From Prasinococcaceae sp. CCMP 1430 (Eukaryota; Prasinodermophyta; Palmophyllophyceae; Prasinococcales; Prasinococcaceae): 64,000 bases of DNA. The notes below the pieces were generated by a model. It was not told the DNA's origin, made no database searches, and saw only the letters and a program-made list of their open reading frames with translations. A program made the translations under genes and the position numbers. Positions 15,049-53,483 of the stretch are shown one piece after another. The stretch's first letter is position 1. Every line of letters begins with the position of its first letter. The DNA lies in contig RQSC01000014.1 in assembly GCA_013416795.1 (NCBI GenBank), positions 274,946 through 338,945 of the forward strand, in the 5' to 3' direction.

Positions 15049-16945
15049 ATGCGACAGGCGGTGATGGAGGCGGGCGCTGCCGCCCTCGGCGGCGAAGCCC
15101 TGCACGGCGCCGGGCGCCAGCTCCTCGAGATCGACACCCTCTCCTCGGAGATCACCGCGGTCAACAATGCCGTCGACACGCTGTGGCTGCTGCTCTCGTG
15201 CGTGCGCGCGCGGGGGAGCCCGGGGACGCGAACTCGGCGACGGCGGCGCGCGCACGGCGCGCGCGCAACACGCGCGCGGCGAGAGAGACTCGGCGCATCC
15301 GTATGGCGCTGGACGCGCGAGCGCGGCGCACGCCTGCCCGCGGTGCAGGACCTGTCGCTGACGGTGCCAGCCGTCGCGCCCCTCGTCCACATCCCTCCCA
15401 CACACACATGCACGCACTCCCGCCGCACACTGCTCCCACGACAGCGCCTTCATGGTGTTCCTGATGCAGGCGGGCTTCGCGGCGCTAGAGGCCGGCTCCG
15501 TCCGCGCGAAGAACACGAAGAACATCCTTCTCAAGAACCTTCTCGACGCGTGCGTCGGCGCCTTCATTTGGTGGTCGCTCGGCTTCCCCTTCGCCTTCGG
15601 CGTCCGTTTCAACGACGGCAACGGCTGGATCGGCGCGAACAACTTCTTCCTGGCCCAGTTCAACACCGTGGAATTCACCATCGAGCAGCCGCGCTACTCG
15701 ATCGAGCTGTGGAACTTCGGCGGCGGCGGTCTGAGCGGCTACGCCTTCTGGATGTTCCAGTGGGCGTTCGCGGCCACCACGGCCACCATCGTGAGCGGTG
15801 CCGTCGCGGAGCGCTGCCGCTTCGTCGGGTACCTGATCTACAACGTCTTCCTGATCGCGTTCGTGTACCCCGTCGTCGTGCACTGGGTGTGGTCCGGCGA
15901 GGGCTGGCTGTCGGCCTTCTTCGTGGCCCCGGACTCGGGCGACCGCGGCTCGTGCCAGAGCATCTGCAACAACCTCTTCAACGGCATCGTCGACTTCGCC
16001 GGCTCCGGCGTCGTGCACATGACCGGTGGCACCGCCGCGTTCTGGGCGGCGTGGATCCTCGGGCCGCGCATCGGCAGGTTCGGCGCGTCCGGCGAGGTGA
16101 ACAGCATGATGCCGCACTCGCTGCCCATCGCCACGCTCGGCGTGTTCATCATGTGGTTCGGCTGGTACGGTTTCAACGCGGGCTCGACCCTGGCGCTCAG
16201 CGGCGGCTTCTGGTACGTCGCCGCCAAGGTCGCGGTCGTCACGACGCTCGCCGCCGCCGGCGGCGGATGCGGCGTGGTGATGATCAACCTCATCGGGCGC
16301 ATGCCCATCGACCTGGCGCCGGTGCTCAACGGCATCCTCTCGGGCCTCGTGGCGTCCTGCGCCAGCGTGGCGACCGCAGAGCCCTTCGCCGGCCTGCTCA
16401 TCGGTATGGTCGCCAGCTGGCTGTACTACGGCGCCGCCAACGTCCTCAAGATGATGAGGATCGACGACCCGCTCGACGCCTCGCCCGTGCACATGATCAG
16501 CGGCATGTGGGGCCTCCTGGCCGCCGGCCTCTTCAGCACGCGCACCAACACTGTCGCCGCCTACGGCGACCCGGGCCCGGACAACCAGCAACCCACGGGC
16601 TTCATCTTCACCGACTCCGGCGGCAAGTACTGGGGCGGCTTCTACGGCGGCGGCGGCAGGCTGTTCGGCGCGGAGATCGTCGCGCTGCTCGCCATCTTCG
16701 CCTGGGTCTCGATCTGCTGCATCGTGCTCTTCGGCACGCTCAAGGTCACGGGCCTGTTCCGCGTGACCGAGGAGGAGGAGATTGTTGGTATGGACATCTC
16801 GCATCACGGCGGAAGCGCCTACGAGTGGCAGGTCAAGGACGGCGAGAAGGACGACGAGAAGCCACCGCCGCCCGCGCCCGAGGAAACCGAGGGCGAGGCC
16901 CGGAGCGAGGAGACCAAGGGTGGGGACGCCGAGGAGAACGTCTGA
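15049..16945 (+). CDS. AMT1: Ammonium transporter (AMT/Rh family)
   Basis: Eleven-TM ammonium channel/transporter of the plasma membrane. Exons 15049-15197 and 15445-16945 join in phase 2 to restore LWLLLSAFMVFLMQAG, the first conserved AMT block. Later blocks include RAKNTKNILLKN, FQWAFAATTATIVSG, DFAGSGVVHMTGG, WFGWYGFNAGS and the pore His region SPVHMISGMWG. The C-terminus is acidic and Pro-rich (KPPPPAPEETEGE). The regulatory cytosolic segment GMDISHHGGSAYEW is present; in plant AMT1 the equivalent GMDxTxHGG segment holds an inhibitory Thr, which is Ser here. Length about 549 aa. A second frame overlapping this gene is an artefact of GC bias. Confidence 0.95.
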
Positions 16946-17208: not shown

Positions 17209-18603
17209 CTAAATCCGACACTCATAGTTGCCGCTGCTCTGCGTGAGGTACCTCACCCACTTGGTGGGGGCGTAGCCGCTCTTCTCGAACACCTTGAGAA
17301 AGCGCACGCGCATGCCCGAGGAGGTGAACATCGGAATGGAGAAGGTCAGCTTGATGGGCGGTTTTTCCCACGCCTTGTCTGCGACGGTCGACAGCATTGA
17401 CACTCCCATGTTGAAGGTGGCCTCTGTCATGCCCGGGAACTCGCTGATCTTCCACACCACCACGCATCGCGCCTTGTCGTACTTGGACTTCCCGGCGGTC
17501 TGCTCGGTCTTCACCGCGGACGTGGTCTTGGGCACGGGAATCTCTATGCGGACGCTGTACCCCGCGAGGGCCGGCGGATAGTCCGCGCGGACCTTCACGG
17601 TCATCTCAGCGCGCGTGCGCCCCGGCTGGTGGTACGCCGGCACGACCTTGAAAGGCAGCTTCACCTGGCCACTTTCGGTGAGGCGATACTGCACCAGATC
17701 GAACTCGCCGTCGGGCGGCACGAACATGATCTCCTTGGTTGCCTCGAAGTGCTTCAGCCTGACACACTGGTGAAACTTGAGCGAGTCCAGTGCCACCTCG
17801 CGCTTGGAGCCGAGGTTGGCCACCGCCTGCGGCCGGCTGACCTCGCCTGGACCGCCGACGCCCGAGGCGACGCCTCCGACACCCGCGCCGCCGCCGTACG
17901 CGGACGCATCCGACTGCTCCATCAGGATCTTGTCGTTCAAGCCGAGCTTGCACTCGGGCATGCCCGAGAGCTGCGACTTCATCACGATCCTGCCACTGAC
18001 CTCGCCAAAGAGCATTTCTCCGGACGGCGTCAGCAAAGCGGACACGTTCTCGATCGTGTCGAGGAACAGCTCGTTTTTCTTGTACGCGATGCCCTGCCGA
18101 CGCCAGGCGACGGCACCTGTGACGTCGAGCGTCAGGTTCTTCTGCTTCTCGCGCAGCGCGAGTATCGCGCGCGGGTCCTTCGGCATCCCCTTCTCGAGAA
18201 TGAAGTCCTTCAGCAAGTTGTACGAGGTCACCTGCGGGTACCCATAGTCCATCGCCTCGTCGAGAATGGCGTATAGCAGGGTGTACCCGAGGCGGACCTT
18301 GTCAGAGTTCAGCACGCCTCCGAAGTACTGCCTGATCGTGTGCACGAGCGCATTGAGGAACTCGAAGGCCATGAGCGAGTTGGCGTTGAGGCGGGTGCTG
18401 GCCACGATGAATATGTCACCCTCGCGCACGAACAGGAAGGAGCTCCCTGCGCGCGTGGCGATGGGGCACACCTCGGTCTCGCGCGTGCGGATGATGCGCT
18501 GTCCGAAGTCCACAAGCGCCAAGCGGCTCACGTCGCCGCGGAAGTCGCGCCATGCGAGCAGCCGCCCCTGGTTCGCCTCCATCAGCGCAACGCACGACAA
18601 CAT
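17209..18603 (-). CDS. AP2M1: AP-2 clathrin adaptor complex, mu (medium) subunit
   Basis: Cargo-binding mu chain of the endocytic AP-2 adaptor. It is one uninterrupted exon of 464 aa. The N-terminal longin-like domain is followed by the linker phosphosite region LDVTGAVAWRRQG, where the Thr aligns with the AAK1 target of animal AP-2. The mu-homology domain contains SGMPECKLGLNDK, FHQCVRLKHFEATKE and PPDGEFDLVQYRL. The C-terminus SSGNYECRI resembles AP-2 (YETRC) more than AP-1. ATG 18603 is preferred over an in-frame TTG nine bases upstream. It is convergent with the ammonium transporter, and the 263-bp space between them shows no gene. Confidence 0.92.
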   Translation of the reverse strand: MLSCVALMEANQGRLLAWRDFRGDVSRLALVDFGQRIIRTRETEVCPIATRAGSSFLFVREGDIFIVASTRLNANSLMAFEFLNALVHTIRQYFGGVLNSDKVRLGYTLLYAILDEAMDYGYPQVTSYNLLKDFILEKGMPKDPRAILALREKQKNLTLDVTGAVAWRRQGIAYKKNELFLDTIENVSALLTPSGEMLFGEVSGRIVMKSQLSGMPECKLGLNDKILMEQSDASAYGGGAGVGGVASGVGGPGEVSRPQAVANLGSKREVALDSLKFHQCVRLKHFEATKEIMFVPPDGEFDLVQYRLTESGQVKLPFKVVPAYHQPGRTRAEMTVKVRADYPPALAGYSVRIEIPVPKTTSAVKTEQTAGKSKYDKARCVVVWKISEFPGMTEATFNMGVSMLSTVADKAWEKPPIKLTFSIPMFTSSGMRVRFLKVFEKSGYAPTKWVRYLTQSSGNYECRI

Positions 18604-18967
18604 GGCTGCCAACAGCCGCTGTTGCCGCGCGCCCTCGCAGTGTGTAGCAGGTGGCGCCTCGCGCGCCTCGCGTTTCGCAACGGCGGCCTAAAAAAGCGCC
18701 GCGGCGGCGGCGCGCGCGGCCGCGGCGCCCTACCCACTCGTGCGCGCCGCGAAGGCAAGGCAAGGCACCTCTATGTAGCCGCCCGGAGCGTGCGCGCGCC
18801 CACGCCGGTCAGTGTGACGCGCGCGCGTGATTTGGGTGTGTGTGTGGGGGGGGGGGGGCGCGCCCGCCAGCACCCCCGGACGGCAACACCCCTCGCATAG
18901 CATAATGTGTGTGCGAAAGTGTGTGCTTCGCAGATGATGAAATTAATCCAATTGTTGTTTTCCAATG
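18604..18967. other. Intergenic region with poly-G run
   Basis: Lies between the AP-2 mu start and the stop of the SLOG/SLATT gene; both are on the minus strand. It contains a GT-rich to poly-G stretch at about 18835-18859 and an AT-rich patch at 18900-18960, probably the 3' processing region of the SLOG/SLATT gene. No coding frame is supported. Confidence 0.5.
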
Positions 18968-21900
18968 TCAGCGCTCGCGCGGCCCCCACGAGGTGATGAC
19001 CTCGACGCACTCGTCGCGGGCCTCGGCCTTGAGCGCCCTGTCGCTGCCGCGCACCGAACCTCCGGTCCAGTCTTCGAGCGTGCCCCCTTCGTCGGCGTGC
19101 GCGAGCCACCTCTCGACGGCCTCCCGCCCGGCCTGCTTCAACTTCTTGCCAATGACGCTCCTCATCAGAAAGGCGTGCCGGATCTCGTCGGTGAGCGGCG
19201 GCTTGAGGACGATGTCGTTTTCCTCGAGCGGCTCTATGATCCTCTCGTCCTGGAGCCACTGTGTGAGCTCATGAAAGAAGATTGGATGCTTGTCACACCA
19301 GTTGTGCTTGAAGATGACCTTGCCCGAGGCATCGGCGGCTTCCGCGATGTCCTGCCTGAGCTCGTTGAGGTCGAGCGAAGGCGCGCTGTCATTCTGCTCG
19401 TCGTCGTCGCCGACGTTCATGGCCAGCACGGAGAGCTCCTCCATGCACGCAGTCTCTACCTCGTCTACCAGCTTGGCGAACTTCTGCGGGTTGGACTTCT
19501 CGATGTCGGTAAGCGAGAGCCACCAGCCGAGCAAATTGCGGATCTTCGTGAGGGAGCGGTTGTACACGAGTAGCTTCTCGCCGAAGCGGCTCTCCTCAGC
19601 GACCGTGACGAGGCTCGACGCTACCGCCACGGACACGGCCACGTATAGGCGGGTCTGGCGGAAGACGGCGAGCACCGTCCCCATCCCACCCAGCACGTAG
19701 TTGAGCACGTTGAAGAGGGCGAGGTAGAAGGTTATCTGCTTTGCCTTGCGCTCGAAGTCCGCCACGATGGGGCCCAGGCGCAGCTCGATGTAATCCTCGG
19801 GACTGAGCGTGCTCACGCCGTTGTCGACGTCGCTCACGGCGCAGTTGGATTTTCGCACCACGTTGCCGCCCTTCGCGCTCAGCGCACCCTCGGCAACCAC
19901 CGACGCCAGCACTTCCTGCTGGATCTTCTGCACGCTTCGGTCGAGCTCGGTGGCGCGGTCCGACACGGTGACGGCCGCATACTCGCCCGTGCGCGTACGC
20001 CACCGATAAATCTGCGAGCGGATGCGCTCCGCCGCCAGTTTGAGCACGGCGGCCTTCTTTTTCGCTCGCAGCTTCAGCGAAATCGCAGAGATCACCGCCA
20101 GCACGATGGGCGCTATGATGACGGCGTGCTCGAGCCAATCCTCCAAGGTCACAGACCATCCCGTCGACGTCGCCTCGGCGAGCCCCGCGCCGCGGATGGC
20201 CTCGATTGTGCAGGCCACGGCGGTGATGACCACGCCGATGCTCAGGAAGCTGTTACGAAGCCACTTCGACTGACCCTTGTAGATGTCGGTAGCGTGCGAG
20301 TACTCGCCAAAGCGCTCCCACGCGAGCCGAACAGTGGGGTCGTCCGTGTTCTTCGACTTGAGCTGCTGCTCCTGCGCGAAGAAGAGCCGCTTGATCATCT
20401 GTGACGTTGTGCCGCCGTCCACCTCAGACAGCTCGATAAACTCAATGTTGGCCTCCTGCACGATCTCGGTGATGGCCGAGTCGTTCATGTACGTGTGCCC
20501 CGCCTGCCTCGCTTTGTAGAGGCGATCGGCCACACCACCCGAACCCTTGATGCACACAAGTGGCCAGCCCTTGCGCACGCACTCCAGCGTCTCCATGAGC
20601 GCGGGCTGGGCGCCGTTGACCAGGAAGGCCACCGCGGGCAGCTGTCGGTCGGTTGCGTCGTCTCTCGCGATGGCATCAGCCAGGTCGAATCGGTACTTGG
20701 AAATCGCCGCCTCGTCATCGGTAGGCAACAGCACCACATGCGTGTGATCTGGCTGCAGCGGCAGGCGGTCCCTCTGCCCCGGGCGCACGTCACCCGGCCA
20801 AGTCATCTTCGGCTTGGCGTTGACGGCCACCAGCGGGACGCGGTACTCGCGGTCGCGGTTGGCATACCCGGCATAGCCCGCAGGGCCCACATCCCACCCG
20901 CCGGACATCACAACAGCGTGCACCTGCTCTGCGGCGGCCATGATGCCGCGACTGTAGACCATCTGCAGCCGCGCGATGGTTTCCTCCGGCGAGATCCCGT
21001 CGGGCAGGCGCTGGCCTGGCAGCTCGCCAGCGACGAAGTCGTCGAGCGCCGACGAGGCCCCGATGACCTTGATTAGGCCGTGCACGCCCGCATTCGTGTG
21101 CTGGTGCTCCGAGATGTAGGATGACAGTTTCAGCATTCTCTCCACCTCATCGGGATGCGTGCCCGGGTCGGGTTCCACGACGAAGCTGGCACGCGCGCCG
21201 AAGAGGGTGGGGTCCCATACGATTCTCTCCACTTTCTCCGTCTCGCCCACGTAAGACGGCACATCTGCAAAAAACGTGTCGACGGGCAGCGGCGGGACCA
21301 TGGTCCCGTAGTCCGTGATGGCCACGTATTCCGCATTCTCGGAGGGGTCGATGTCCGATGGCGGCGCCGAGGGCGGAGGACTCGCGAAGGACGCGAGCGA
21401 GGGAGGCGTAGCGGGCTGCGGCATCAGCGCGAGCGCGCGCGCGTGAGCGTGCGATGCGCACGCATTTGACCCCATGTCCGCTTCATCGCCCGAGTCGTAG
21501 AATGGCGGCGATGGCGGAAGCGAGGCCATGAGTGGCGGCGACGGCGCGGGGGAGGTCGCAAAGCCACCAACGTTCGGCGCGCCGCGCATCGAGGACGCCA
21601 TCTTCTTGGACATGACCATCGAGGATGCCACCCCGGTGACCGTGGACGCCACCATGGGGTCGCCGTCTCCATCGTAGAGCTTCATGTTGTGCGTGTTGCA
21701 CAACCAGGCGATGTAGATCTCAAAGAACTCGGGATATTTGCCCATCCACACCTTGCCCCAGGCGACACTACCCTCGGACGTGTTCGAGCTCACATCTGCC
21801 ATGAACTCGTCCAAGTTGAAGTTCAGCTCACCATTCGTGCCCTCCGTCTCGACCATGGGCGCGCCTGGGTTCGTTGAGCGCCGCTGGTTGGACATCGCGC

Positions 21901-24630
21901 GTTCGCACACGCGCACGAGCTTAGAGAACTTCTGCGGGTTGGCCTGCTCGATGGCCGTGCGCGAGCGCCACCAGCCAATCACCTCGAGCATCTTTCCGCT
22001 GGCGCGGTTAGCGGCAATGATCTTGGGCTCGTAACCAAGAGACTCGGTGAGCGTGAGCAGCGCGCTCGACACTGCCGTCGTGACGGCAATGTAGATATTC
22101 AGGCCGAAGATCGCGAACGCCGTACCCGACGCTGACATGAGGATCACTAGAATGGACATGGCCTTGCTTGCACTGTCCATCATGTTCGCGCTCGTCTGGT
22201 ACGTGAGCATGGCGGGCTCCGCGCGCATCTTGATGTACGAGTCCGGTGCCAGCACGCTGAAGCCGTCATCATCCTCGCTCACGCGGTAGTCTGTGTTGCG
22301 CAATGCCGTGAGGACCGAGCGGTCGAGAGCAACCTCGCCGACGAGCGTGCTTTGCAGACGATCGGTGATAATCTGATAACGCTCCGCCAGGATGGCATCG
22401 CATTTCTGCGCTGCCACGAAGGCCTCGACGCGCGAGCGATAGGTGTAAAGTTCCTTGCGCATGGCCTGGGCTGCCGCCGTGAGGATTTTTGCCTTCAGCC
22501 CATACTGGAACTTTTGGTTGATGGACACCAGAATTGTGTTGGCGATGGGGGTGAAGAAGATTATGTGGTCCATGGTGTCGGCGTCATGTGCGGACACGCG
22601 CGCGTACACCGAGTCGTTGCGCACCGATACAAGCACCACGATAAACACGGCGAGGAGCTGGATAGACGCGTACATGTACCAATAGATCTTTCCGAGTCTC
22701 GCTGAGTTGCTCTCGAAGATAGCGATGGCCTGATGGACCATCACGGACGCGCCGGTGGCGTCCTCTACGGGTGGGAGCCGCACGCGCCCATCATCGCCAT
22801 CGCCGTCGCCCATGAGCGCCGCTCTCACGCCCTTTGCTCTCTTTTGGTCACCCCCCAACTTCTCGTCCTTGTCTTCCTTCCCCGGTCCCGCCCCCCTGGC
22901 CAGCATGGTCTTGAATAACCGCTCCAGCATCGCCTGTAAAATCTTGCCGTCGGCGTCGGCTATGCTGATCACTTCAATCACTGCCGATCGAACGATCTCC
23001 ATGAGCTGACGGAGGCATGCACGCGCGGGTTGCAGGTGCGAGTGCGGGCGCACGGAGAATGAGATGGGAGGGCATTTTTGAGGGCGGGGGTTCGGCGACG
23101 GCTGTCAGTGGGCTGGATCGGGCGAGCACGGCGCACGAGCGAGCGAGCGCTGCGCGCTCGCGTGCACGCGTGCAGGATCGCGCGCAAATTGCGCGCGGGT
23201 GCGTTCGTTGCTCTCACCTTGGGATTGGGCACGAAGTGGTTGGCGTTCTCCTTCTGCGAGGCCCAAGCAATGGCGTCCGCTGCGCCACCCGTTCCCTTCA
23301 CGATCACCAGCGGCCACCCACGCCTCACGCACGCAAGAGTCTCCTCGATGGCGGCCTCGGCACCGCTCACAAGCACACCCACCACAGGCAGTGGACCCGC
23401 GCCACGCGCGTTGCGGGCGAGCACGGCCTCAATCACGCGAAAACGCAGCTGCCGTGCCCCCACCTCGTCGTCCGTGGCGGCCATAACCACGTGCGAGTGG
23501 CCTGGGTGCACGCCGAGGCGCAGCTCGCGGCCTTTTGCCCCGTGGTTTGGCCTCGGGTCGCCCGGCCACGTGGCGCGTGACATGGGCACCACGCCGACCA
23601 CGGGCATCTTGTTGCCCCGGTCCATGGCGGCACGGCCCATGTAGGCCACCGGCCCGCGGTCGATGCCCGCCGTGAAGACAGCCGCGTGCACCGACTCGGC
23701 CGCGCGCGCGAGCCCGCGGGAGAACATGAGAGACAGTCTCGAGCTCGCCTCCGTCTTGGTCACAGCTGCGGTCAGCCCGCCGAAGTGCTCAACGTAATTG
23801 GGGTCGCGTGCCACGCGGCCGTCGTGCTCGGCAATCTGCCTGTCGAGCAGGTCCGAGTCACCGATGACGGTGATGACACCTTGCACACCCGCGGTCGAGC
23901 CCTGCTCCTGCCGTATGAAGCCGCGCAGATCGAGCGTGGCGGCCACGCTCTCCGCAGTGTCGCTGTCGCACACGGCCACCGCCAGGCTGGTGCGCATTTC
24001 CATGTCTTTCGGCTGCCAGCGAATCTTTGATGTCGGCAGCAGCGGCGATGGTGCTGCGGCCGCGCGCGCCGGCGCAACGGTGCTGCCGGCATCGTATCCC
24101 GCGCTGTTGCTGTCGTCAGCGCCCTTGCCTTCTTCGTCAGCGACGCCTTCGGGATTCACCCGGCGTGAAAACAACTTGCTGAGAAGCCTGGGGACAGGCT
24201 TTTGGGGGGATGAGGGCGCTGGCGTGGGGTCGGCGCCGGCTTGAGTGTCGAATGGCGTCGGCGGTGGCAGCGCTGATGCATCGACGTCCACGCCGGCAGC
24301 GGCGGCGGCATCGAGTGGGTCAGTACGTGCAGCCGAGCCCACGTCGGTAGCGCTCCCTCCCTTCTCTATAGGAGCTCCATCGATCCGGCTTTCCACAAGA
24401 TATCCAGGCTCCACTCCGGCCTCTTTAGCTGCATGCAACTCGTGCGCAACCTCCTCCGCAACAGGTGCGACGCCTCCCTCGTCCATGCCTGGCGCGTCGA
24501 CGGCAGCGTCGGGATCGGCGCGGCTAATAGATAGGTTCGCAGATTCCGTTGAAAGGGGTGCGACGCCCTCCGCGTCCACGCGCGGTACGTCTGCCGCACT
24601 CTCGGTGGGAAGCCCGCCGCCTCCCGGCAT
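18968..24630 (-). CDS. Tandem SLOG(LSDAT)-SLATT membrane protein, about 1,816 aa
   Basis: Two exons, 24630-23218 and 23005-18968, join in phase 0. Order: disordered Ala/Pro-rich N-terminus (1-200); LSDAT/SLOG domain A (about 202-504); membrane hairpins A1 (about 578-636) and A2 (752-793); low-complexity linker (940-1030); LSDAT domain B (about 1061-1351); hairpins B1 (1388-1447) and B2 (1561-1607); charged tail. The SLOG domains match the TRPM-type sensor: MFSRGLARAAESVHAAVFTAG, GHSHVVMAATDDE and GWPLVIVKGTGGAADAI in A; GIMAAAEQVHAVVMSGG, THVVLLPTDDE and GWPLVCIKGSGGVADRL in B. The hairpins end in SLATT/DUF4231-like YIELRLGPIVADFERKAK and WWLSLTDIEKSNPQKFAKLV. SLOG domains bind nucleotide-derived ligands and SLATT domains are predicted membrane effectors; sensing coupled to membrane perturbation or a channel is inferred. 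The frame stays open without ATG to 24765, so an upstream exon is possible. Confidence 0.8.
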
Positions 24631-25253: not shown

Positions 25254-28250
<2,997 letters not shown>

Positions 28251-28458: not shown

Positions 28459-28884
28459 NNNNNNNNNNNNNNNNNNNNNNNNNNNNNNNNNNNNNNNNNN
28501 NNNNNNNNNNNNNNNNNNNNNNNNNNNNNNNNNNNNNNNNNNNNNNNNNNNNNNNNNNNNNNNNNNNNNNNNNNNNNNNNNNNNNNNNNNNNNNNNNNNN
28601 NNNNNNNNNNNNNNNNNNNNNNNNNNNNNNNNNNNNNNNNNNNNNNNNNNNNNNNNNNNNNNNNNNNNNNNNNNNNNNNNNNNNNNNNNNNNNNNNNNNN
28701 NNNNNNNNNNNNNNNNNNNNNNNNNNNNNNNNNNNNNNNNNNNNNNNNNNNNNNNNNNNNNNNNNNNNNNNNNNNNNNNNNNNNNNNNNNNNNNNNNNNN
28801 NNNNNNNNNNNNNNNNNNNNNNNNNNNNNNNNNNNNNNNNNNNNNNNNNNNNNNNNNNNNNNNNNNNNNNNNNNNNNNNNNNNN
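28459..28884. other. Assembly gap (426 N)
   Basis: Run of undetermined bases in the divergent promoter between HSP90 and the kinesin-like gene. Flanking sequence (28251-28458 and 28885-28992) is GC-rich with no clear coding frame. Some regulatory sequence is missing. Confidence 0.99.
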
Positions 28885-52581: not shown

Positions 52582-53483
52582 NNNNNNNNNNNNNNNNNNN
52601 NNNNNNNNNNNNNNNNNNNNNNNNNNNNNNNNNNNNNNNNNNNNNNNNNNNNNNNNNNNNNNNNNNNNNNNNNNNNNNNNNNNNNNNNNNNNNNNNNNNN
52701 NNNNNNNNNNNNNNNNNNNNNNNNNNNNNNNNNNNNNNNNNNNNNNNNNNNNNNNNNNNNNNNNNNNNNNNNNNNNNNNNNNNNNNNNNNNNNNNNNNNN
52801 NNNNNNNNNNNNNNNNNNNNNNNNNNNNNNNNNNNNNNNNNNNNNNNNNNNNNNNNNNNNNNNNNNNNNNNNNNNNNNNNNNNNNNNNNNNNNNNNNNNN
52901 NNNNNNNNNNNNNNNNNNNNNNNNNNNNNNNNNNNNNNNNNNNNNNNNNNNNNNNNNNNNNNNNNNNNNNNNNNNNNNNNNNNNNNNNNNNNNNNNNNNN
53001 NNNNNNNNNNNNNNNNNNNNNNNNNNNNNNNNNNNNNNNNNNNNNNNNNNNNNNNNNNNNNNNNNNNNNNNNNNNNNNNNNNNNNNNNNNNNNNNNNNNN
53101 NNNNNNNNNNNNNNNNNNNNNNNNNNNNNNNNNNNNNNNNNNNNNNNNNNNNNNNNNNNNNNNNNNNNNNNNNNNNNNNNNNNNNNNNNNNNNNNNNNNN
53201 NNNNNNNNNNNNNNNNNNNNNNNNNNNNNNNNNNNNNNNNNNNNNNNNNNNNNNNNNNNNNNNNNNNNNNNNNNNNNNNNNNNNNNNNNNNNNNNNNNNN
53301 NNNNNNNNNNNNNNNNNNNNNNNNNNNNNNNNNNNNNNNNNNNNNNNNNNNNNNNNNNNNNNNNNNNNNNNNNNNNNNNNNNNNNNNNNNNNNNNNNNNN
53401 NNNNNNNNNNNNNNNNNNNNNNNNNNNNNNNNNNNNNNNNNNNNNNNNNNNNNNNNNNNNNNNNNNNNNNNNNNNNNNNNNNN
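52582..53483. other. Assembly gap (902 N)
   Basis: Run of undetermined bases that removes the 5' ends of both flanking divergent genes (the probable mitochondrial protein and the ClpP paralogue). The 53484-53605 flank is GC-rich and ends in an intron acceptor. Confidence 0.99.

What the first reader, a model, noticed from the sequence alone, without database searches (positions are those of the whole stretch)
18968..24630. Eukaryotic SLOG(LSDAT)-SLATT fusion: candidate nucleotide-sensing membrane effector
The sequence shows TRPM-type SLOG sensor motifs (MFSRGLARAAESVHAAVFTAG, GWPLVIVKGTGGAADAI) in one polypeptide with DUF4231/SLATT-like membrane hairpins. SLOG domains of the LSDAT type are known from TRPM channels (nucleotide-derived ligands such as ADP-ribose species) and from bacterial conflict systems, where they occur with SLATT, a predicted membrane effector. 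A ~1,800-residue algal protein combining both, without a TRPM channel domain, suggests a self-contained sensor-effector for stress, infection or NAD metabolism. Function is inference.
Basis: partly seen in the sequence, partly recalled or inferred. Interest (0 to 1): 0.9.

Follow-up and report, generated by a model that had tools for sequence, protein, structure and literature searches.

The report
Algal doubled SLOG–SLATT membrane sensor-effector
A green-alga-like genome carries one gene that strings together, twice over, a nucleotide-sensing domain shared with animal TRPM channels and a predicted bacterial immune pore, which suggests that a bacterial defence-type sensor and effector was taken over and doubled in algae.

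The parts
18968..24630 (-). whole gene, ATG to stop, 2 exons, 1816 aa
   Evidence: relatives
23006..23217 (-). 212-bp intron GTGAGA...CCGTCAG; in P0001 (99% identical) the same interval is read through as 70 residues (210 nt), so its length differs out of frame; junction contiguous in P0002/P0003
24028..24630 (-). low-complexity N-terminal region, aa 1-201
   Evidence: no family matched here
22904..24027 (-). SLOG/LSDAT domain 1 (about aa 202-505; spans the intron)
   Evidence: LSDAT_prok 1.5e-24 on the exon-1 part; LSDAT_euk aa 291-486
22319..22741 (-). module 1 first 2TM unit, at the position of DUF4231 in P0003; hydrophobic aa 577-608 and 615-633
   Evidence: no DUF4231 match of its own
21881..22237 (-). 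SLATT_1 of module 1, aa 728-846
21584..21781 (-). post-SLATT segment 1 (D-[IV]...G.V....W..K...FF pattern), seen in algal-type proteins, not in the bacterial rows aligned
   Evidence: sequences
20354..21238 (-). SLOG/LSDAT domain 2, aa 1061-1355
19973..20278 (-). module 2 first 2TM unit (DUF4231, 18.0 bits, below cut-off), aa 1381-1482
19436..19792 (-). SLATT_1 of module 2, aa 1543-1661
   Evidence: 2.5e-08 alone
19154..19351 (-). post-SLATT segment 2, same pattern as segment 1

Best explanation
A nuclear gene for a membrane-bound nucleotide sensor-effector. Each module puts a TRPM-MHR1/2-like SLOG clamshell (cytosolic sensor) in front of four membrane-crossing helices built from two 2TM SLATT-type units. 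Most likely an NAD-derived nucleotide (ADP-ribose or a cyclic or modified relative) binds between the SLOG lobes, the lobes close, and the pull on the long helix that enters the membrane makes the SLATT units assemble or open and permeabilise a membrane. The module comes from a bacterial family in which, in part of the loci, a TIR domain (NADase family) is encoded next door and is the likely source of the signal (Thoeris-like logic: TIR makes the signal, SLOG reads it, a membrane domain acts). In algae the module was doubled head to tail, so one chain brings two sensors and eight membrane helices. Shown: gene structure, domains, internal duplication, bacterial single-module relatives, TIR neighbourhood in a minority of them, SLOG fold. 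Inferred: direction of descent from bacteria, ligand class, gating, pore, cellular role.
Against: No TIR_2 or TIR match in the own genome (six-frame, exon by exon, two profiles only). 11 of 18 full-module loci show no TIR in the stretch held, and L010 and L019 carry it on the other strand. The loop position that is Arg in nvTRPM2 and in 8 of 16 bacterial sequences (recalled as R358 of hsTRPM2) is Gly in 11 of 11 algal-type rows, so the ligand may differ from TRPM2's. The SLATT part has no PDB match under E 0.001, so 'pore' rests on published prediction. PADLOC: 0 of 3 eukaryotic queries match, 1 of 2 bacterial ones weakly (2TM effector, 2.2e-4). DUF4231 is sub-threshold in the window protein. 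In P0003 only one SLATT_1 stretch passes, in module 2.
Confidence: 0.6

Rival explanations
1. A housekeeping ligand-gated channel: the alga uses it like TRPM2, to turn ADP-ribose or NAD status into ion flux (Ca2+, osmotic or redox signalling), with no defence or death role.
For: Sensor fold is that of TRPM MHR1/2. No TIR found in the genome. Not an expanded family here: only the window locus and one near-identical partial copy match.
Against: Relatives of the whole module sit beside TIR genes in bacteria. No ion-channel family; the SLATT part resembles no solved channel under E 0.001.
Confidence: 0.25
2. The SLOG domains are enzymes (LOG-like phosphoribohydrolase or nucleotide processing) anchored to a membrane, not sensors.
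For: LOG enzymes belong to the same superfamily (recalled; the name is explained so in PMC13143021, passages).
Against: Matches are to the LSDAT models and no LOG family appears up to E=1; the LOG motif PGGxGTxxE (recalled) is absent from the protein; the G-[ST]-GG-x-AD loop is TRPM-like.
Confidence: 0.06
3. A membrane scaffold or tether in which SLOG and SLATT have lost ligand and pore function.
For: Loop Arg replaced by Gly in 11 of 11 algal-type rows; the doubled architecture could be structural.
Against: H-x-H, G-[ST]-GG-x-AD, D[DN]G..L.P..Y and WW are kept in both modules of the window protein.
Confidence: 0.09

Closest known systems
Bacterial LSDAT-DUF4231-SLATT_1 proteins (annotated 'DUF4231 domain-containing protein' in the two plasmid records)
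   Same: same three domains in the same order, 85% and 87% of the module covered, E 2e-24 and 4e-28
   Different: single module, in part of the loci next to a TIR gene; the algal protein is a tandem double with extra post-SLATT segments
Uncharacterised Cymbomonas tetramitiformis protein CYMTET_17368 (P0009)
   Same: two LSDAT and two SLATT_1 stretches
   Different: 33% identity (to P0003, 64% covered); whether the duplication was shared is not resolved (p-AU 0.375)
TRPM channels (TRPM2 MHR1/2)
   Different: no ion-channel family matched; SLATT units instead. Absence of MHR3/4 and NUDT9-H rests on the Pfam scan alone
[quoted passage not shown]
   Same: logic: TIR-made signal read by a nucleotide-binding domain; the TM variant is thought to act on membranes (PMC11204291, passages)
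   Different: here SLOG is LSDAT-type and joined to SLATT; no TIR match in the alga
SLATT proteins of other conflict systems and of polinton-like viruses in cryptophytes
   Same: predicted pore-forming 2TM domain (PMC7159879, PMC12220804, passages)
   Different: the PLV transcripts in the passages seen carry SLATT_4; no SLOG partner is mentioned there

Membership tests
LSDAT-type SLOG (TRPM MHR1/2-like) | significant LSDAT profile match in both modules | tested here: met
LSDAT-type SLOG (TRPM MHR1/2-like) | Rossmann-like bilobed fold as in TRPM MHR1/2 | tested here: met
   module 2 only; module 1 not modelled
LSDAT-type SLOG (TRPM MHR1/2-like) | binds ADP-ribose-type nucleotide | not testable with these tools
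   needs a binding assay; pocket columns mixed
SLATT / DUF4231 2TM effector | significant SLATT profile match with 2 hydrophobic helices | tested here: met
   SLATT_1 over cut-off in both modules; hydropathy; helices
SLATT / DUF4231 2TM effector | DUF4231 match over cut-off in the first 2TM unit | tested here: inconclusive
   window module 2 18.0 bits (cut-off 24.7), module 1 none, own genome 0; over the cut-off once each in P0002 and P0003
SLATT / DUF4231 2TM effector | forms a pore | not testable with these tools
   published prediction only (PMC7159879, PMC12483538 passages)
TRPM channel | TRP ion-transport pore domain | tested here: not met
   no ion-transport family up to E=1
Thoeris-like TIR-SLOG system | TIR gene adjacent (bacterial relatives) | tested here: inconclusive
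   enriched over chance but in a minority: 6 of 18 full-module loci over Pfam's cut-off, L022 under it
Thoeris-like TIR-SLOG system | TIR partner in the alga's genome | tested here: inconclusive
   PF13676 and PF01582 give 0 matches, but split exons and other families were not covered
LOG phosphoribohydrolase | PGGxGTxxE motif (recalled) | tested here: not met

The most novel reading that the evidence does not exclude
Green algae run a eukaryotic form of a bacterial TIR–SLOG–SLATT immune relay: a doubled, nucleotide-gated membrane pore that acts as an innate-immune or programmed-death effector, with two different SLOG sensors per chain working as a built-in threshold or AND-gate. It would be a second eukaryotic re-use of the same bacterial sensor that TRPM channels carry.
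Probability: 0.3. Interest if true: 0.85.

Novelty: new variant of a known kind. Interest (0 to 1): 0.62.

Why it matters
It puts the TRPM sensor and a predicted bacterial immune pore in one eukaryotic chain, with bacterial single-module relatives that connect both to TIR signalling. That makes three things testable: what the LSDAT-SLOG ligand is outside TRPM2, whether SLATT domains form nucleotide-gated pores, and whether TRPM-type sensing grew out of bacterial conflict systems.

Tried and rejected
Chance or contamination: rejected; the gene has an intron, lies between an AP-complex mu-like and an HSP90 gene (read by eye, no family search), and has algal-type relatives. Viral origin: no relative confirmed in viral contigs (41 pattern hits, 0 confirmed) or phages; these scans are of limited reach. 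First genome-contig scan with the eukaryote-only alignment gave nothing (53 pattern hits, 0 confirmed); a second with two bacterial rows gave 63 loci, so the first negative was one of sensitivity. Protein searches were capped at the 8000 candidates sharing most words and gave 4, 2 and 4 proteins, so the family's breadth is a lower bound. SLATT-part fold search: best E 0.021, a CydDC chain with TMq 0.17, taken as chance; it was not put through VIA-align. LOG enzyme motif: absent. Papers: Burroughs et al. 2015, which named SLOG/LSDAT/SLATT (recalled; cited for SLOG and LSDAT in PMC13143021 and for SLATT in PMC7159879), is not held, so I cannot say whether a eukaryotic LSDAT–SLATT fusion is already in it; among the rows listed by searches (10 and 18 list 20 of 49 and 20 of 117) no title or abstract start describes such an algal protein; only passages of nine papers were opened. 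Species: window GC 69.2% and 24.5 Mb fit Prasinoderma coloniale (69.8%, 25.3 Mb; PMC7455551, passages), but its assembly there is 22 chromosomes and this one is 145 contigs; not proven. One RbcS-like exon (PF00101 positions 66-97, E 6e-9) lies in sequence of GC 0.67 (the 0.13 at the start of that locus is 824 N of 1000) and hints at a green-type alga. The tree with Cymbomonas does not settle one versus two duplications: without it m1 and m2 rows each form one clade; with it neither does, and one clade is not rejected.
Full report
Observation. On the minus strand the frame from ATG 24630 to the stop ending at 18968 is open apart from a 212-bp interval 23217-23006 with GT..AG ends; removing it gives 1816 aa. 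P0001 (99% identical over 74% of the query) was translated through an interval of 210 nt at the same place, while P0002 (1769 aa) and P0003 (1686 aa) are contiguous at the junction, so the intron is well supported. No transcript was available.

Domains. Pfam finds LSDAT_prok (5.4e-52, two stretches), LSDAT_euk (9.9e-22, two) and SLATT_1 (5.3e-17, two), and no ion channel up to E=1. BLAST of aa 200-960 on aa 1061-1700 gives 32% identity, E 5e-86: the protein is a tandem repeat of one module. A DUF4231 match lies between SLOG and SLATT_1 in module 2 of P0002 and after the SLOG in module 1 of P0003, over the cut-off. In the window's module 2 the same place scores 18.0 bits, under 24.7; module 1 has no report, and a genome-wide DUF4231 search gave 0. 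Three bacterial DUF4231 units also match SLATT_3 over its cut-off, so I read each module as two 2TM units of SLATT type, eight membrane helices in all; simple hydropathy shows the paired segments.

Relatives. Two LSDAT and two SLATT_1 stretches are found in P0002 and in the Cymbomonas tetramitiformis protein P0009; P0003 has two LSDAT stretches and one SLATT_1 stretch that passes, though its module 1 aligns through the SLATT motifs; P0004 has one LSDAT set, a SLATT_1 just under the cut-off (25.0 v 26.3) and looks cut off in its second module; P0005 and P0006 start inside a SLOG. tblastn of module 2 on 72,556 plasmid records finds 2 proteins covering 85% and 87% of it (Chlorohelix, Hymenobacter), both with LSDAT_prok, DUF4231 and SLATT_1. 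A genome scan gave 63 loci. Fourteen encode the whole module in one ORF (L012-L023, L025, L026), two as adjacent genes (L024, L036), and many Nostoc-type loci have a SLOG gene followed by a 2TM gene (three such downstream proteins scanned, all DUF4231). Of 29 sequences scanned together at E 0.01, LSDAT_prok matched 24 and DUF4231 24, as many as could hold them by position, and SLATT_1 23, so at least 20 of the 21 expected (one search gives totals, not rows).

Tree. Without Cymbomonas, module-1 rows (4) and module-2 rows (5) each form one supported clade, apart from 16 bacterial rows. With both Cymbomonas modules added the order among the eukaryotic modules is unresolved; holding module-1 rows together is not rejected (p-AU 0.375). 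The root is a midpoint; donor group, direction of transfer and number of duplications stay open.

TIR neighbourhood. TIR was first noticed in 3 of 27 neighbour proteins. Seeded with the TIR gene next to the Oculatella operon, an iterated profile search of 3161 ORFs in 65 bacterial loci finds TIR in 14: L010, L017, L019, L022, L024-L029, L041, L046, L049, L057. Pfam was run on 11 of these: TIR_2 is over the cut-off in 9 (L010, L017, L019, L024, L025, L026, L041, L046, L049), under it in L022, and not visible for L029, whose list was cut at 25 rows; L027, L028 and L057 were not scanned. Distances from the SLOG/SLATT gene to the start of the open frame on the same strand: L025 1 bp, L041 57, L022 61, L017 107, L024 110; L010 and L019 are on the other strand at 1.2 and 3.2 kb. 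With genome-wide TIR_2 counts (genome sizes rounded there) as control, the 16 genome-contig full-module loci should hold 0.25 by chance; 6 seen, P 7e-8; 5 without L022, P 3e-6; 4 of 15 if L026, kin of L025, is dropped too, P 4e-5. Caveats: the detector for 'seen' was my own profile and the control used Pfam's, and the test was thought of after TIR was noticed. Several of these TIR proteins also carry WD40 repeats, one a NACHT domain.

Pocket. H-x-H is present in 27 of 27 modules. At the column that aligns with an Arg of nvTRPM2 (recalled as R302 in hsTRPM2, a residue named in PMC6759353), algal-type rows have R in 10 of 11 and K in 1; bacterial rows R in 1, K in 3, M or L in 12 of 16. At the glycine-loop column recalled as R358, algal-type rows have G in 11 of 11, bacterial rows R in 8 of 16. 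These mappings are tentative.

Mechanism. TRPM2 MHR1/2 binds ADPR and closes like a clamshell (PMC6759353, passages). Thoeris SLOG reads TIR-made 3'cADPR, and TM-macro effectors are thought to perturb membranes (PMC11204291, passages with abstract). SLATT is predicted to be a nucleotide-responsive or pore-forming effector (PMC7159879, PMC9503650, PMC12483538, passages). Some unicellular algae encode TIR-NLR proteins (PMC10022894, passages), but this genome shows no match to two TIR profiles, so the signal may come from another enzyme or from ADP-ribose released under stress, as for TRPM2. The most likely reading is a membrane effector gated by an NAD-derived nucleotide.

Own genome. Besides the window gene there is a 2757-bp partial copy on contig C68, 99.93% identical including the intron, with two mismatches near one edge: a recent segmental duplication or an assembly effect. 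Species not named; see Tried and rejected.

Noticed in passing
G000:C68:227500-237000 (L009 3227-5983): 2757-bp partial copy of this gene, 99.93% identical including the intron, ending abruptly on both sides; recent duplication or assembly artefact.
   Followed up: partly
window 19154-19351 and 21584-21781: A segment of about 65 aa after each SLATT, with the pattern D-[IV]...G.V....W..K...FF, present in algal-type proteins and not in the bacterial rows aligned; no Pfam match.
   Followed up: partly
L024 3169-8149: Cyanobacterial gene row: SLOG, DUF4231-SLATT_1, TIR. A YjeF-type NAD(P)HX dehydratase gene precedes the operon in L036; a second such match among the 27 neighbours is probably the gene upstream in L024, not checked singly.
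   Followed up: partly
L025 6960-11753 and L026 7513-11853: Long ORFs with several TIR_2 stretches and WD40 repeats downstream of SLOG-SLATT genes in Thioploca and Halobeggiatoa; L017 also joins TIR to WD40, and in L010 the TIR protein carries NACHT and FGE-sulfatase domains.
   Followed up: partly
window 52582-53483 and 28459-28884: Runs of N; the apparent low-GC dip at 52-54 kb is due to the first run (GC 0.69 without N).
   Followed up: yes
window 25254-27608, 17209-18612, 15452-16945: By eye: HSP90 ending in MEEVD, an AP-complex mu-like gene and an ammonium-transporter-like gene flank the locus; they look like ordinary eukaryotic genes.
   Followed up: no
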